Source: a virus
DNA: 31,272 nt
IMG/VR virus record: IMGVR_UViG_3300034102_001386
Coordinates: 1 to 31,272 of that record
Direction: 5' to 3' (one strand)
The notes under the pieces are model-generated. The model worked only from the letters and a program-made list of their open reading frames with translations. It made no database searches and was not told the DNA's origin. Made by a program: the position numbers and the translations under genes. Shown piece after piece: positions 1,111 through 11,412 of this stretch; the first letter of the stretch is position 1, and every line of letters starts with the position of its first letter.

Positions 1111-1869
1111 TCAGACCGAAATAAACTTGAATTGTTTTTTGACGCAATGGTCAACGTAAATGCGCGAAAAAATCTTTTGCCAACTCGGAACAAGTTCAAA
1201 TTGATTCTTTTCAGCGGCTTTTTGTCTTTGAGCAAACTCGATTTTGGCGCAACGCATGAATTCATTTTTGTCTTGTTGAATAAAACATTCGGAAAAGTTT
1301 CGCGCGATTGCGTCAGCTTGAAATTCGTCACCGATCCAGTGACCAGCTTCAAGCGATTTCAAATAAATTTCTTTTGCCTCTTGTCTAAACAAATGTTCCT
1401 GACGAATTGACTGAATTTCCTTTTCGTTTTTCTGTCGAATTAAATCAATTTCGTTCAACAAAATGACTTTATTCTTCCAATATTCAGAAATTGGTTGAAG
1501 AAGTTCGTCGCGTGTTAACGTTTGATACGCTTTTTTTTCGATTACAGCGTATCTAAACGAATTTTGAATGTCTGATATTGTTATCCCATTAAAACGTTCG
1601 CAAATCGAAGCAAATGAAATATTCCAAAGTTCAGGTGAAAGATTTTCAGCGCGAAGACCAAACAAAACTTCACAGCTTGAAATCAAAATTCGAATACATT
1701 CTTCACGCGATTCCTCAACTTTCGACGATTTCGACAGCATCAAAGGCGCTGTTATTCTCGCCATTGTGTGACCTTTGGCTGTCAACTGGTTCATTATTTC
1801 CGTAAAGAACTCTTTCAATATAGCTTCGCTTTCGTTCTTCGTTGTTAATTGGTTGTTGTGTGTTTCCAT
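1111..1869 (-). CDS. Hypothetical replication-region protein, 252 aa
   Basis: I recognise no family. The protein is mostly alpha-helical by appearance. Residues about 140-165 (LIRQKNEKEIQSIRQEHLFR and flanks) look like a coiled coil, and the C-terminus is charged. It lies between the DnaD-like gene and recT, so a replication role such as helicase loading is possible but unproven. The ATG at 1867-1869 is preceded by the leader TTTAAACACAAACAAAA, as at other genes here. That start makes it overlap the 3' end of the DnaD-like gene by 155 bases in another frame. Internal ATGs at 1764 and 1740 would shorten the overlap, so the start is uncertain while the C-terminal body is well supported. Confidence 0.7.
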   Translation of the reverse strand: METHNNQLTTKNESEAILKEFFTEIMNQLTAKGHTMARITAPLMLSKSSKVEESREECIRILISSCEVLFGLRAENLSPELWNISFASICERFNGITISDIQNSFRYAVIEKKAYQTLTRDELLQPISEYWKNKVILLNEIDLIRQKNEKEIQSIRQEHLFRQEAKEIYLKSLEAGHWIGDEFQADAIARNFSECFIQQDKNEFMRCAKIEFAQRQKAAEKNQFELVPSWQKIFSRIYVDHCVKKQFKFISV

Positions 1870-2524
1870 TTTTGTTTGTGTTTAAATTATTGATCCAAGA
1901 CGCGTCGAAACCGGACCAGCTTCTTTCGACGCAAATTTGCAAAATTTCATTTGCTGGTAAATTTGATTTTTTTATTTCACGAATAAAAGCTTTCAAAGCG
2001 GTTTCAGTATTCTTTGCTTTTTTGGCTTTACGGATTGACAGCCATTCGTCAACCAGTTGTTCGTCAAAATTTAAATTCAAAAGTTCATTTTTAAAAGAAA
2101 AAGATTTTTGAAGCGAAGCGACTTTATTCTTCTTCGTTTCTTCTTCTACTTCTACTTCGTTTCTTTCTACTTCAAGCGGCGCATTGCTGACAATTGTCCG
2201 CGCGTTGCTGTCAAGTTGCGGAAATTTGCTGTTCATTGTGCGCAAACGTTGACCAAAATCGACAATCTTTAAATATTTTTTTGAATCAACTTCGTATAAA
2301 ATAATTATTCCAGCTTCGACGCAATCGTTCAGCATTTTTTCCACAATTGATTGTTTAATTTCTTTCAGCGGAAACAACGCCGCTTTTAAAAGTTTTGGGT
2401 TTCCATGAAAACAACCAAAATCGTCAGCTTTCATTATCAAACGCGTAAAGAAAACTTCAGCTTCAAAATTCAGCGCGTCAACGTTTTCAGAAAATGTCCA
2501 GTCGCGTAATATTCGGTTTGCCAT
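1715..2524 (-). CDS. DnaD-like phage replication initiation protein
   Basis: This 269-residue protein resembles phage replisome organisers. The N-terminal half (about 1-115) has the winged-helix type sequence seen in DnaD-like phage proteins: MANRILRDWTFSENVD, then FFTRLIMKADDFGCF and a YLKIVDFGQR strand. An acidic linker follows near 115-135 (VERNEVEVEEE). The C-terminal part carries a DnaD-like helical segment ending in ERSWSGFDASWINN. The last 50 or so residues are polar and low in complexity, and they overlap the next gene by 155 bases. Its likely role is to remodel the phage origin and recruit helicase. It sits downstream of the structured element at 2541-2633, which suggests control by attenuation. 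Confidence 0.75.
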   Translation of the reverse strand: MANRILRDWTFSENVDALNFEAEVFFTRLIMKADDFGCFHGNPKLLKAALFPLKEIKQSIVEKMLNDCVEAGIIILYEVDSKKYLKIVDFGQRLRTMNSKFPQLDSNARTIVSNAPLEVERNEVEVEEETKKNKVASLQKSFSFKNELLNLNFDEQLVDEWLSIRKAKKAKNTETALKAFIREIKKSNLPANEILQICVERSWSGFDASWINNLNTNKNGNTQQPINNEERKRSYIERVLYGNNEPVDSQRSHNGENNSAFDAVEIVES

Positions 2525-2540
2525 TTGTTAAAAAATTAAA

Positions 2541-2597
2541 TAAAAAAAGCCTGACCAATTTACTTGCGGCTTCGACTTCGCGTTCAATTAATCAGGC
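2541..2597 (-). terminator. Intrinsic terminator or attenuator upstream of the DnaD-like gene
   Basis: On the minus strand GCCTGATTAATT (2597-2586) pairs with AATTGGTCAGGC (2560-2549), a 12-bp stem with two U-G wobbles. It closes a 25-base loop and is followed by seven Ts and then ATTT. This is a canonical intrinsic terminator. It lies after the VRR-NUC gene and 17 bases before the DnaD-like start, and also downstream of a promoter-like site. It can therefore end the previous operon, attenuate the next gene, or end a small RNA. Confidence 0.75.
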
Positions 2598-2633
2598 AAT
2601 AATATTTTCAGTTACTATATTGTCGAAGCGTAA
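2541..2633 (-). ncRNA. Candidate structured small RNA or attenuating leader, about 90 nt
   Basis: This segment runs from the predicted start site of the 2640-2647 promoter to the T-tract of the terminator and contains no ATG on the minus strand. Besides the 12-bp terminator stem, the 5' segment GCTTCGAC (2629-2622) is perfectly complementary to GTCGAAGC (2576-2569), which lies inside the terminator loop. The RNA could form a pseudoknot, or an alternative long hairpin that competes with the terminator. No known family was recognised. Expression is inferred. Confidence 0.45.
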
Positions 2634-2639
2634 CCTTTG

Positions 2640-2667
2640 CAAATATAAAAATTATTTTAGTGACAAA
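2640..2667 (-). promoter_or_regulatory. Bacteroidota-type promoter upstream of the structured leader
   Basis: The minus strand reads TATATTTG at 2647-2640, matching the TAnnTTTG -7 consensus. TTTG lies 16 bases upstream at 2667-2664, inside the 3' end of the nuclease gene. The spacing is slightly short. Its first product would be the 2541-2633 segment and then the DnaD-like gene. Confidence 0.5.
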
Positions 2668-3038
2668 TACCAGTCAATTAAAGTTTTTGTTTCCTCAAAT
2701 CCAACCGCAAACGTTGCGAAATAATTCATTTTGTTTAACTGGTCGATTGTTCTTTGTTGATTTGCCAAATGTTCAGATTTCAAAAGACAGCCGTCTTTTT
2801 TGAATGGTGAATTTGCTTTTAACTCAAGAAACAATCCATTGAATTTTGAATTTGGTTTAAAAATTATAATGTCAGGACAATGAAAACCGCGCTTTTGGAT
2901 CGTTGAATTTCTGACGCGTTGCGGAATTGTCAATTGTAAAAATGCGATTGTGTCGCTTAAATATAAAACGTCTTTGTATTTGATATTTAAATAATTGCAT
3001 ACTTGTTTTTGAAGCTGAAATTCAGGTTGATTTTTCAT
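2652..3038 (-). CDS. VRR-NUC-like nuclease, 128 aa
   Basis: This is probably a small phage endonuclease of the PD-(D/E)XK superfamily, VRR-NUC type. The visible core is KRGFHCPDIIIF (Asp56) followed by GLFLELKANSPFKK, where Glu72-Leu-Lys74 supplies the E-x-K half. A later Q94xxxIDQL helix and a GFEETKTLIDWYL C-terminus also match the family pattern. Such proteins occur in phage replication modules and cut branched or structured DNA. I chose the ATG at 3036-3038, 10 bases after the GNAT stop, because the longer frame would need a TTG start. It is the last gene before the terminator at 2541-2597. Confidence 0.75.
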   Translation of the reverse strand: MKNQPEFQLQKQVCNYLNIKYKDVLYLSDTIAFLQLTIPQRVRNSTIQKRGFHCPDIIIFKPNSKFNGLFLELKANSPFKKDGCLLKSEHLANQQRTIDQLNKMNYFATFAVGFEETKTLIDWYLSLK

Positions 3039-4376: not shown

Positions 4377-4868
4377 TCACACGCCGCAACGAATGACCTT
4401 CTTACCTACTTTAATGGAATTACGAAAAGTTGAATTTACGAATTTTTCAACGTAGTTATGTTCTAAATAACGCAATGCAAGAATTTGGTTCTTTGAATGG
4501 TCTTCAGTTGCGTAAATGATAACGTCAGATAATGCGACAACTCGGTCAATTTTTTCTTTGAGTAACCAGTCAAAACCTTGAAGCGCGTTCATAACGTTTT
4601 TAAGCGCATACACGCAAGTCGAATGGTCTTTTCCAATATAGTCACCAACTTGTTCGAAAGTTGATCCTGAAGCGTATTTGTACGCGATTAAAATCTGTCG
4701 CCAGTGAACGAAATCTTTTTTACGCGTCTTTTGCTGTAATTCGGCAAAGGTGTAAGGACACGCCGTCAAAACTTCTTCAACGTCGAAATAATATCCGTCA
4801 GGAAAAAATGAACGCAATCTGTCAGCGTTTAAAATTGTGCGAAGGTCTTGTTTTTCTTTAGTGTTCAT
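4377..4868 (-). CDS. DnaA domain IV-like DNA-binding protein, 163 aa
   Basis: The protein contains a sequence typical of the C-terminal DNA-binding domain of DnaA: RQILIAYKYASGSTFEQVGD (about 57-76) followed by the signature GKDHSTCVYA (79-88), equivalent to G-R-D-H-S-T-V-x-x-A. It lacks any ATPase domain. It could bind DnaA boxes as a stand-alone initiator accessory or repressor. The C-terminal 70 residues are unassigned. The ATG at 4866-4868 was chosen over an upstream TTG because the previous gene stops at 4870-4872. A perfect DnaA box lies about 1 kb upstream at 5888-5896. The domain call is good; the function is inferred. Confidence 0.78.
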   Translation of the reverse strand: MNTKEKQDLRTILNADRLRSFFPDGYYFDVEEVLTACPYTFAELQQKTRKKDFVHWRQILIAYKYASGSTFEQVGDYIGKDHSTCVYALKNVMNALQGFDWLLKEKIDRVVALSDVIIYATEDHSKNQILALRYLEHNYVEKFVNSTFRNSIKVGKKVIRCGV

Positions 4869-4869
4869 A

Positions 4870-5028
4870 TTATTCAAATCTTGCGTTTTGTACTTTTAAA
4901 TAGTGTTCGACATTAAACGAACCGCCTTTGTCGTGTGAAAAGCTTTTTTCCTTCCACCAACGTGCCATTCTTAAAACTGGAATCGGAAGAGGAAAAAAGC
5001 TGTTTTGTTTTTTGGTTTTGGTTTTCAT
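4870..5028 (-). CDS. Small hypothetical protein, 52 aa
   Basis: The frame begins MKTKTKKQNSFFPLPIPVLR and continues with a Trp-rich segment (MARWWKEKSF) and a C-terminal HYLKVQNARFE. It is strongly basic. I recognise no family. Its ATG overlaps the stop of the 110-residue gene as ATGA, and its stop is one base before the DnaA-like ATG, so it sits exactly between two supported genes. That fit is the main evidence for coding. Confidence 0.66.
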   Translation of the reverse strand: MKTKTKKQNSFFPLPIPVLRMARWWKEKSFSHDKGGSFNVEHYLKVQNARFE

Positions 5029-8607: not shown

Positions 8608-11412
8608 TTAAAAATATATTACCTCTGTTGTTTCAATAGTAGCAACCCAACGTAAAACTTGCAACGGCACTGGTGAACCATTTGAAGTAATTCTTAAACC
8701 GCCATTTGCAGTGTCCGCTGTTAATGTTGGTGCGTTGTAATTTGGAATATTTGAAACTAAAGTCACATTACTAGAAACAAGGGTTGTTGAACCAGCGTTT
8801 GGACCTCTCACGATTAAACCTTCGATATCCCATGCCGCGCAATCCAAAGATCCTGGTCTTTTAACAACAATAGAACCTTTAAATCTAAAAGCGGACATAT
8901 TGGTTAAAATTACTTGATTGTTCGTGCTTGGAGTTAAACCATCACTTGTAAACGCAATGCTTGTTGACGCGGTGCTTAAACATCTTAAAATAATTTTACT
9001 ATATTGAGCGTCGCCATTGTTAGCAAATCTTCCGTTTGCATAAGTGTATTTTCCATAAATGCCTTGAGTGTCGGCATTTAAACCTATTGCAAAAGATTGA
9101 TTTCCCGAAGCAAGTGAACTTTGACCTATTGCAAAAGAATTAAAACCGTTAGAAGTATTTCCATATCCAATGGCGTAACACAACGTATTTGAGGCATTAT
9201 TGCTGTCCCCAATAGCAACAGAACGAGTTCCACCAGCCGTATTGTAAGACAATGTTCCAGCACCTAAAGCCAAAGAACTTGTTCCACTTGCATTATTTAA
9301 TCTTCCAACTGAATAACTACCAACTCCGTTTGAAAGGTTTTCGTTTCCTAAAGAGTATGAATTTGTGGTAGTTGAACTATTATTTTGACCAATAGCAACA
9401 GAAGCACCACCACCAGTAACACTATTATTTGAACCAGCCGCCAAACTATTTGCCCCAATTGCAGTATTATTTGAACCTCCTAAAATTGCAGAAAAATTAC
9501 CACTTGCAACCATCGCCGCACTTGAACGTGACATTTGTAAATCTAGCGCAAATTGACCTCTTTTATTACCACCAGCAAAAGTATTGTCGGGAATAGCCGC
9601 AAGGAAAGCACCTCCTGCTTTAGGAACTAAAGCCGCATCAATATTTGTCGTCGAACCAATTGCATTTAATGAATTTACAAATGTTGTTGTATTTGGACTT
9701 GAAGTGTTTTGACTTTGTGTAAAATATGCCGCTACATTTGGCGCATATTGTGGTACATTTAAAGTGTTTCCTATTAACGTAGATGCGCCACTCGTTCCCG
9801 TTGTGGTTAATATTATCGAGTCTTGTTTTAAATTTAAAGCCGTTTGCGTTGTGGTTGAAATTGGCTTGTTTAAATCACTTGTATTGTCAACGTTACCTAG
9901 ACCAACATCAGATTTTGTTAAATCAATATTTCCCGAACCTAACAACGATTGTCCCTCGATAGTTTTAATATTTGTGCCCGAAATTAAAACATTTTGTTTA
10001 TTGTTAAATGCAGTCCAATCGCTAGAGGATAAAGCCCCCCTATTTGCAGCGCTTGCCGTTGGCAAATTGAAAGAATGCGTGTCACCTGAAGAACTGATAT
10101 TGAAATCTGTTCCTAAAGTTCCAGTTTGAAAATATTGAACTTGGTCAGTTAAACCATTCAAAGCCGTTAAACCAGTTGAAATTGTTGTTACAACTTCAGA
10201 AAGGTTATTGTCTTGCGTGTGTAACGTTATCGTTCGTCCAGCGTGTGAAATAAAAACACGAATTGCGATTCTGTCCGTTGGTGTTAAAGTTGTTTCAGGA
10301 ATTGCAACAGCGGTATAATATAAATCAACAGCCGAACCAACAATGTTTTCAGGGTTTGTTGAATTGCTACCAAGAAGCGTGAAAGCTGTTCCGTCGTATT
10401 TGTAAATTTCACAATAAAAGTTCGGAACACCGCCGCCCGAAGACGCGCTAAAATAAAATTCAGTATGCCAGTTTCCCGCTGGAATATTAATAACATTCGG
10501 TTCATTAACGTCAGTTATAAATTGCGCAATTAATCCGTCAGCATTTAGAATGAAGTCAGCGCTCGGTCCAAGGTTCGCAATATTAGAAAGTTGGTAATAT
10601 TGACCGCCTAAAATTGTGCCTTGTGAAACGCCGCCATTCAAATAAAGTGAAACAGCCGAACCGCCACCAGTTAAAGTTGGAAAGTCAGCAAGTGTTCCGT
10701 CGCCTCGAATGTATTGTGACGCGATACCTTCAGGATCGTTTAATTTTGCGTCAAGTGCCGCTTGAAGGTCAGTTTGGTCAGCAAGTGTTCCAACAATGTC
10801 ACCCCAAGAAATAATTGTTGTTGCGCCGTCTTGCCACGAAGTGACACCAGCGCCGTCGGTTGTCAAGACTTGACCAGCTGTTCCGTCGGTGTTTGGTAAT
10901 GTGTACGAAGTATTTATGATAACGCCGTTTTCATTTGCTTCAACGCGATAATTTGTTATTCCGTCATTAAAATTTAAAGCCGAACCGACGTTTGTTATTT
11001 GAAGCGAAGTTGAATTTAATCCGTCGTTTAAAACTAATTTTGTATTTGTTGTATTAATGTCAAATTGAACGTCTTTGTCAGGTGACAAAAGATCCACAAT
11101 AGATAAATAAATTTGTGCTATACTTTGATTAAACGTACTTGTTGAAGTTGTTGAATCAGAAATAAGCGCGTTAAATTCACCAGCATTTATTGAATTAAAA
11201 GAAATAATATTTCCGTCTAAATCAACGCTTCTGTTTCCGTTCAAACTTCCGTCAGCGTTGTAAATGTTTTCAACAGCGGCTAAAATTCCAGCTTTGATAA
11301 CTGAACCAAGTATTTTTTTCGTTTGATAACCGCTTCCAGTAAAAAAATCAATGTCATAAAAATCGTCGTCTTGAAACGCGAAACTTTCGAGGGGGTATTG
11401 GTTAATTTCCAT
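8608..11412 (-). CDS. Tail fiber / receptor-binding protein with YadA-head-like repeats, 934 aa
   Basis: This is the likely receptor-binding fiber. The N-terminus (MEINQYPLESFAFQDDDFYD) would attach to the tail. Typical fiber-shaft strings follow: GTAGQVLTTDGAGVTSWQDG near 185 and KSDVGLGNVDNTSDLNKPIS near 500. From about 634 to 782 there are degenerate repeats of 14 or more residues of the form S-x-A-x-G-x-x-N-x-A-S/N-G, as in the left-handed beta-roll heads of trimeric autotransporter adhesins. The last 140 residues are a beta-rich tip. A trimeric fiber is inferred. The 3' half contains four of the five CTAG sites in the window, which suggests exchange of the tip. Confidence 0.82.
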   Translation of the reverse strand: MEINQYPLESFAFQDDDFYDIDFFTGSGYQTKKILGSVIKAGILAAVENIYNADGSLNGNRSVDLDGNIISFNSINAGEFNALISDSTTSTSTFNQSIAQIYLSIVDLLSPDKDVQFDINTTNTKLVLNDGLNSTSLQITNVGSALNFNDGITNYRVEANENGVIINTSYTLPNTDGTAGQVLTTDGAGVTSWQDGATTIISWGDIVGTLADQTDLQAALDAKLNDPEGIASQYIRGDGTLADFPTLTGGGSAVSLYLNGGVSQGTILGGQYYQLSNIANLGPSADFILNADGLIAQFITDVNEPNVINIPAGNWHTEFYFSASSGGGVPNFYCEIYKYDGTAFTLLGSNSTNPENIVGSAVDLYYTAVAIPETTLTPTDRIAIRVFISHAGRTITLHTQDNNLSEVVTTISTGLTALNGLTDQVQYFQTGTLGTDFNISSSGDTHSFNLPTASAANRGALSSSDWTAFNNKQNVLISGTNIKTIEGQSLLGSGNIDLTKSDVGLGNVDNTSDLNKPISTTTQTALNLKQDSIILTTTGTSGASTLIGNTLNVPQYAPNVAAYFTQSQNTSSPNTTTFVNSLNAIGSTTNIDAALVPKAGGAFLAAIPDNTFAGGNKRGQFALDLQMSRSSAAMVASGNFSAILGGSNNTAIGANSLAAGSNNSVTGGGASVAIGQNNSSTTTNSYSLGNENLSNGVGSYSVGRLNNASGTSSLALGAGTLSYNTAGGTRSVAIGDSNNASNTLCYAIGYGNTSNGFNSFAIGQSSLASGNQSFAIGLNADTQGIYGKYTYANGRFANNGDAQYSKIILRCLSTASTSIAFTSDGLTPSTNNQVILTNMSAFRFKGSIVVKRPGSLDCAAWDIEGLIVRGPNAGSTTLVSSNVTLVSNIPNYNAPTLTADTANGGLRITSNGSPVPLQVLRWVATIETTEVIYF
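9065..9510 (-). repeat. YadA-head-like repeat region inside the fiber gene
   Basis: On the minus strand this codes for about ten degenerate repeats such as SVAIGQNNSS, SYSVGRLNNAS, SLALGAGT, SVAIGDSNNAS and SFAIGQSSLAS. They are diverged at DNA level and recognisable mainly as protein, as expected of a beta-roll stack, and not a simple DNA tandem array. Confidence 0.75.

What the first reader, a model, noticed from the sequence alone, without database searches (positions are those of the whole stretch)
2541..2647. Promoter, structured non-coding RNA and terminator upstream of the replication gene
A TATATTTG element is followed about 90 bases later by a 12-bp terminator hairpin with a T7 tail, and there is no ATG between. 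An upstream GCTTCGAC is perfectly complementary to GTCGAAGC within the terminator loop. This allows a pseudoknot or a competing antiterminator fold. The layout is that of an attenuator or riboregulator for the DnaD-like gene, or of a free-standing small RNA. I recognise no known class.
Basis: partly seen in the sequence, partly recalled or inferred. Interest (0 to 1): 0.7.

Follow-up and report, generated by a model that had tools for sequence, protein, structure and literature searches.

The report
Phage leader RNA with kissing hairpins
Many viruses of Flavobacterium-type bacteria start their DNA-replication transcripts with a small folded RNA whose two hairpins lock together through a fast-changing 8-letter match and end in a stop signal just before the gene; it matches no RNA family in the public catalogue and probably controls how much of the replication gene is made.

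Summary
On the minus strand, window 2647-2542 holds a Flavobacterium-type promoter (TATATTTG), a ~94-nt RNA, and a U-tailed terminator, 24 nt before the replication-initiator ATG. The RNA is two hairpins. The loop of the first (K, GCUUCGAC) pairs with the loop of the second, the terminator hairpin (K', GUCGAAGC). A search blind to K found 57 distinct loci; 53 carry a K' complement in the right place (2.4 expected). In 66 distinct members K:K' is 95.6% paired, with double-sided changes at all 8 pairs (145 cells; 51 by shuffling; slid controls 31-40%). Cultured carriers are Flavobacterium phages snusmum and hattifnatt and Tenacibaculum phage Gundel. Anatomy (start at P1, U-tract after a G+C base, ATG a median 19 nt later) makes it a leader with a built-in terminator: downstream genes, mostly replication genes, are reached by read-through. 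A competing antiterminator fold is not supported, because K' is in the terminator loop, not its stem. K is the fastest-changing helix and changes independently of the downstream gene, which hints at specificity between RNAs. Function is inferred; no transcript was measured.

The parts
2640..2647 (-). -7 promoter element TATATTTG (Bacteroidota TAnnTTTG)
   Evidence: Sequence. TAnnTTTG within 22 nt upstream in 29 of 33 member RNAs found without a promoter requirement, background 1.7%. In F. johnsoniae the final G is at -5 (PMC6847099), which puts +1 at 2635.
2542..2635 (-). The RNA as predicted, about 94 nt, from inferred +1 to end of the U-tract
   Evidence: CM R1 match 2637-2543, 100.5 bits. 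The 5' and 3' ends are inferred, not mapped.
2630..2635 (-). P1 5' arm GGUUAC
   Evidence: P1 97.7% paired in 66 members; also found by RNAalifold unsupervised
2622..2629 (-). K: GCUUCGAC in the loop of hairpin 1
   Evidence: K:K' 95.6% paired, 8 of 8 pairs with double-sided changes
2616..2621 (-). A/U-rich 3' part of loop 1 (AAUAUA), usually 6 nt
   Evidence: Length and A/U content conserved in the parse
2610..2615 (-). P1 3' arm GUAACU
2598..2609 (-). A/U-rich linker (GAAAAUAUUAUU), median 12 nt in the family
2586..2597 (-). P2 5' arm (terminator stem) GCCUGAUUAAUU
   Evidence: 94.3% paired, all 11 counted pairs with double-sided changes
2582..2585 (-). Internal loop, 5' side GAAC (possible loop-E / sheared G-A motif with 2561-2565)
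   Evidence: GAA/AGUA in the window's subclass, GA-rich UGA/GGA or UGA/UGA in others; the motif assignment is inference
2579..2581 (-). P3 5' arm GCG
   Evidence: 99.5% paired, 3 of 3 pairs covary
2569..2576 (-). K': GUCGAAGC in the terminator-hairpin loop
2566..2568 (-). P3 3' arm CGC
2561..2565 (-). Internal loop, 3' side AAGUA
2549..2560 (-). P2 3' arm AAUUGGUCAGGC
2542..2548 (-). U7 tract of the intrinsic terminator
   Evidence: T frequency 0.79-0.91 at positions 1-6 after the last G-C pair, 0.40 at position 7 (53 members)
1715..2524 (-). Downstream replication initiator (DnaD-like / O-like), 269 aa, reached only through the RNA's terminator
   Evidence: PHROGs primosomal / replication initiation protein, E 6.7e-25

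Best explanation
It is a new family of phage 5'-leader RNA. Transcription starts at the base of hairpin 1; the loop of hairpin 1 (K) pairs with the loop of hairpin 2 (K') to form a compact kissing/pseudoknot fold; hairpin 2 is also an intrinsic terminator. Most transcripts would therefore end as a stable ~94-nt RNA, and the gene a median 19 nt downstream, typically the first of a replication operon, would be expressed from the read-through fraction. Shown by sequence comparison: promoter signature, the four helices, K:K' pairing, U-tract, fixed position before an ORF. Inferred: termination, partial read-through, any regulation of it, and the time of use in infection.
For: K-blind retrieval: 53/57 distinct loci have the loop-loop complement versus 2.4 expected, 25 different K sequences. 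K:K' in 66 members: 95.6% paired, 145 double-changed cells versus 50.6 shuffled, slid controls 31-40%, on an alignment whose model contains no K pairs. P1/P2/P3 96.1% paired, 18 of 20 pairs double-changed. Promoter signature 29/33 versus 1.7% background. Terminator signature: 50/53 have >=5 T in the 8 nt after P2, G+C at the stem base. ATG 10-48 nt after the hairpin in all 51 with a readable downstream ORF, and no further TAnnTTTG between RNA start and ATG in the 33 examined, so read-through is the simplest route to the gene. Downstream: replication initiators of several unrelated families, helicase, Prim-Pol, DNA methylase, HNH endonucleases, antirepressor. No Rfam match.
Against: No transcript, 3' end or expression measurement exists here; terminator efficiency is unknown and a few members have weak tails (Gundel GGUUUCUUGU; L009 GGCUUUAUUGUUU). 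The RNA has no visible switch (no alternative fold), so regulation of read-through is conjecture. The hairpin sits at the 5' edge of the ribosome landing site, so a role in translation or mRNA stability would fit the same anatomy.
Confidence: 0.6

Rival explanations
1. Trans-acting specificity RNA: the short terminated RNA pairs through K or K' with the nascent or read-through transcript of the same kind (its own phage or a co-infecting relative) and sets termination or translation, as plasmid copy-control RNAs, P4 CI RNA or IsrK do. K then diversifies to create new specificities.
For: K is the fastest-changing helix: in pairs >=85% identical elsewhere K differs at 15.4% of sites versus 5.1% for P1 and P2. 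L005 and the window's close relative L002 differ at 8 of 16 K/K' sites, all compensated, with ~4% difference elsewhere. L005 and L006 have 92% identical initiators but different K. Paralogues in one contig (L215, L243) have different K. Wobble pairs are rare in K (2 of 288 cells; P2 63 of 388). IsrK precedent: terminated short RNA plus read-through mRNA from one promoter, upstream of an antirepressor (PMC4825925); Gundel's RNA also precedes an antirepressor.
Against: Intramolecular pairing explains covariation without any trans step. Distinct K in paralogues is expected by chance with this many K types. No consistent second K or K' site was found elsewhere in the loci. The cultured snusmum/hattifnatt phages come from a set isolated as virulent (PMC7077304), which argues against lysogenic immunity.
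Confidence: 0.2
2. Structural 5' cap of the mRNA: the fold at the very 5' end protects the phage mRNA or positions the ribosome; the U-tract is only an A/U-rich ribosome landing site and little termination occurs.
For: Inferred +1 is at the base of P1; the hairpin ends a median 19 nt before the ATG; flavobacterial initiation disfavours structure near -20 to +20 (PMC6847099).
Against: T is concentrated in the 6 nt directly after a G+C-rich stem base and drops at position 7, as in an intrinsic terminator, rather than being spread through the landing region.
Confidence: 0.15
3. Antitermination or polymerase-modifying RNA: the folded leader binds RNA polymerase, like HK022 putRNA, and makes it resistant to terminators including its own.
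For: Two hairpins directly after a phage promoter, ~70-95 nt, tertiary contact (PMC9378689).
Against: put precedes the terminators it suppresses; here the second hairpin is itself the terminator. No sequence or family match.
Confidence: 0.07
4. DNA-level inverted repeats (protein-binding or single-stranded origin structures), not RNA.
For: Position before replication initiators; the pairing segments are inverted repeats in the DNA.
Against: Frequent conserved G-U pairs in P2 (63 of 388 cells) and a promoter/U-tract frame; K changes while the initiator stays, and the initiator N-terminus is swapped while K stays.
Confidence: 0.03

Closest known systems
IsrK RNA of Gifsy-1 prophage (PMC4825925)
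   Same: One phage promoter, short terminated RNA, terminator read-through into a downstream gene including an antirepressor.
   Different: No Rfam match to IsrK; kissing-loop fold with K:K' within one RNA; mainly replication genes; carriers known here are phages of Bacteroidota.
P4 CI RNA / c4 antisense RNA (RF01695)
   Same: Small phage RNA in the leader of a replication operon (P4) with short complementary segments; termination ahead of replication genes.
   Different: CI acts in trans on seqA/seqC and is processed; here both partners lie in one RNA with its own promoter and terminator; no Rfam match.
Plasmid rep attenuators and copy-control loops (pT181, pIP501, ColE1; from general knowledge)
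   Same: Terminator ahead of a replication initiator; rapidly diversifying loop complementarity.
   Different: Those use a counter-transcribed antisense RNA; none is evident here.
HK022 putRNA (PMC9378689)
   Same: Two-hairpin promoter-proximal phage leader RNA of ~70 nt.
   Different: Suppresses termination and contains no terminator; different fold.
phi29 packaging RNA (from general knowledge)
   Same: Two covarying complementary loops in one phage RNA; a dimer or ring cannot be excluded.
   Different: No packaging context; always directly upstream of an early-type ORF.

Membership tests
Any Rfam 15 family | Score at or above a curated gathering threshold | tested here: not met
   0 matches in the window and nine member loci; permissive search of window 2450-2750 gave only chance snoRNA/lncRNA hits
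Intrinsic terminator / attenuator leader | G+C-based hairpin followed at once by a U-tract, between promoter and gene | tested here: met
Intrinsic terminator / attenuator leader | Measured premature termination with regulated read-through | not testable with these tools
   needs RNA 3'-end mapping and reporter fusions
Classical switch attenuator (terminator/antiterminator) | Mutually exclusive alternative helix | tested here: not met
   K' lies in the terminator loop; P2 and K:K' are conserved together
P4 CI / c4 antisense RNA | Sequence/structure match to RF01695 | tested here: not met
   no match even at E up to 10
P4 CI / c4 antisense RNA | Trans pairing with a leader transcript | not testable with these tools
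   K diversification is suggestive only
IsrK | Short RNA and read-through mRNA from one promoter, acting in trans | not testable with these tools
   layout only
HK022 put RNA | putL/putR two-stem structure suppressing downstream terminators | not tested
   no put model or assay was used; layout differs

The most novel reading that the evidence does not exclude
A phage RNA identity system: each phage's leader terminator carries a hypervariable kissing helix whose sequence determines which short RNAs can act on which leader, so that replication of co-infecting phages is matched or excluded by RNA pairing, like plasmid incompatibility but in virulent phages.
Probability: 0.12. Interest if true: 0.92.

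Novelty: new variant of a known kind. Interest (0 to 1): 0.75.

Why it matters
It adds a compact, strongly covarying RNA family, absent from Rfam, to phages of Bacteroidota, whose RNA regulation is little known to me. It is unusual in that the intrinsic terminator is half of a kissing-loop fold and that the kissing helix is the fastest-evolving part. Cultured carriers exist (snusmum, hattifnatt, Gundel), so termination, read-through and trans specificity can be tested directly.

Tried and rejected
Antiterminator alternative fold: rejected, K' is in the loop. DnaD-specific autoregulation: rejected; identical RNAs precede different genes (L045/L046/L054; L242/L247/L255) and K changes while the initiator stays. 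Second target for K or K' in the same loci: none consistent. Origin reading: cumulative GC skew shows no clear switch at the RNA in window or snusmum and DnaA boxes are not enriched. Bacterial carriers: one genome-contig scan with the window-subclass pattern found only one unrelated hit; other subclasses were not scanned there. Plasmids: one member queried, none. A loose pattern gave mostly noise. The terminator scanner missed this hairpin because it allows loops of only 3-8 nt. Literature: no description found in ten searches of an open-access subset; a reported large catalogue of viral structured RNAs that I recall could not be found or checked.

Full report
OBSERVATION. Without pseudoknots the strand folds into the two hairpins at -22.5 kcal/mol, z = -2.0. 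Alone this is only moderately unusual.

FAMILY. Relatives of the initiator gene in viral contigs carried the same layout with different but complementary loop sequences. A pattern with nine free bases in place of K' gave further members, all with an exact 8-nt partner upstream. The cleanest test used a pattern for promoter and P1 only, leaving the loop, the linker and everything downstream free: 57 distinct sequences, 53 with a >=7-nt perfect complement to the loop in the downstream hairpin, against 2.4 expected from shuffled downstream sequence; the other four are plainly unrelated. The 53 carry 25 K sequences. A covariance model of P1, P2 and P3, without K, found these and three divergent second copies, in L215, L243 and L258.

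STRUCTURE. Three MAFFT or model alignments give the same result. In the largest, 66 distinct sequences aligned to a model that knows nothing of K, the K:K' helix is 95.6% paired, all eight pairs have double-sided changes (145 cells, 50.6 in shuffles), and sliding the partner by 1-3 columns drops pairing to 31-40%. The nested helices are 96.1% paired with 18 of 20 pairs double-changed; that part of the count leans towards the model by construction, but RNAalifold found the same P1, P2 and P3 unaided. Between P2 and P3 lies a purine-rich internal loop: GAA opposite AGUA in the window's subclass, which resembles a loop-E motif, and UGA/GGA or UGA/UGA in others. In L009 and L010 AGUA and GAA appear on exchanged strands; there K:K' is 7 bp and the gene is a 60%-identical relative of the window's initiator. 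K:K' and P2 can coexist, since K' is in the loop.

FRAME. TAnnTTTG lies within 22 nt upstream in 29 of 33 members against a 1.7% background. In F. johnsoniae its G is at -5 (PMC6847099), so the window's transcript should begin at 2635, the first base of P1. After the last G-C pair of P2, T frequency is 0.79-0.91 for six positions and then 0.40; 50 of 53 have at least 5 T in the 8 nt after P2. An ORF starts 10-48 nt later (median 19), leaving little room for another promoter. Hence the gene is most simply reached by read-through, from this promoter or from upstream genes.

GENES. Downstream proteins include several unrelated replication-initiator families (primosomal/O-like, DnaD-like loaders, DUF6291, Lin1244_N), SNF2-like helicase, Prim-Pol, BT4734-like, N6/N4 methylase, NUMOD4/HNH endonucleases, and a KilAC antirepressor in Tenacibaculum phage Gundel_1. 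In Gundel and in the Flavobacterium phages snusmum and hattifnatt the RNA is in cultured phages; the last two belong to a collection of virulent isolates (PMC7077304). RNAs identical over the compared region precede different genes (L045, L046, L054; L242, L247, L255), so the RNA is not tied to one gene product.

K EVOLUTION. In pairs at least 85% identical outside K, K/K' differs at 15.4% of sites, P1 and P2 at 5.1%, P3 at 3.2%. L005 and L002 differ at 8 of 16 K sites, as four compensated pairs, and at ~4% elsewhere. L005 and L006 share a 92%-identical initiator but not K; window and L006 share K but not the initiator N-terminus. Wobble pairs are rare in K: 2 of 288 cells, against 63 of 388 in P2. 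This could be neutral drift in a helix where only complementarity matters, recombination, or selection for specificity; the data do not decide.

MECHANISM. Best supported is a leader whose fold ends in an intrinsic terminator, giving a short RNA and a read-through mRNA. The trans-specificity model, for which IsrK and P4 CI are precedents (PMC4825925), is the most interesting rival. No measurement of RNA was available.

NOVELTY. No Rfam 15 match in the window or nine member loci, and no description found in the open-access library. That library lacks most subscription papers, so prior description is not excluded. I call it a new family of a known general kind (phage leader/attenuator RNA) with an unusual architecture.

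Noticed in passing
L294 (MN812234.1) 9791-9827: The annotated start of snusmum helicase gp033 (9791) lies inside the RNA's second hairpin; the ATG at 9827, just after the terminator, is the likelier start.
   Followed up: partly
window 1715-2524 versus L005/L006: Initiator gene mosaic: the C-terminal ~128 aa are 84-92% identical while the N-terminal part is unrelated; the exchanged segment begins right after the RNA, which may serve as a recombination seam.
   Followed up: partly
L215 1792-1888 (+) and 6725-6821 (-): One contig holds two convergent replication modules with related helicases, each led by its own copy of the RNA with a different K. Chimeric assembly was not excluded.
   Followed up: no
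L300, L309, L317, L322, L325: NUMOD4/HNH endonuclease genes carry the same promoter-RNA leader; in L309, L322 and L325 the next ORF looks structural, so RNA plus endonuclease may move as a cassette.
   Followed up: no
window 4377-4877; L294 8796-9134: In both the window and snusmum a gene with a DnaA-type C-terminal helix-turn-helix lies 0.6-1.8 kb upstream of the RNA.
   Followed up: no
window 1111-1869 and 1715-2524, minus strand: The 252-aa ORF overlaps the end of the initiator gene by 155 bases in another frame; its true start is probably internal.
   Followed up: no
L258 5560-5585 (-); L260 1336-1361 (+): A further divergent candidate before another ORF: promoter, GTCACGG/CCGTGAC loop complement, TTAGTAGGG...CCCGAACG hairpin and T8 tail.
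   Followed up: partly
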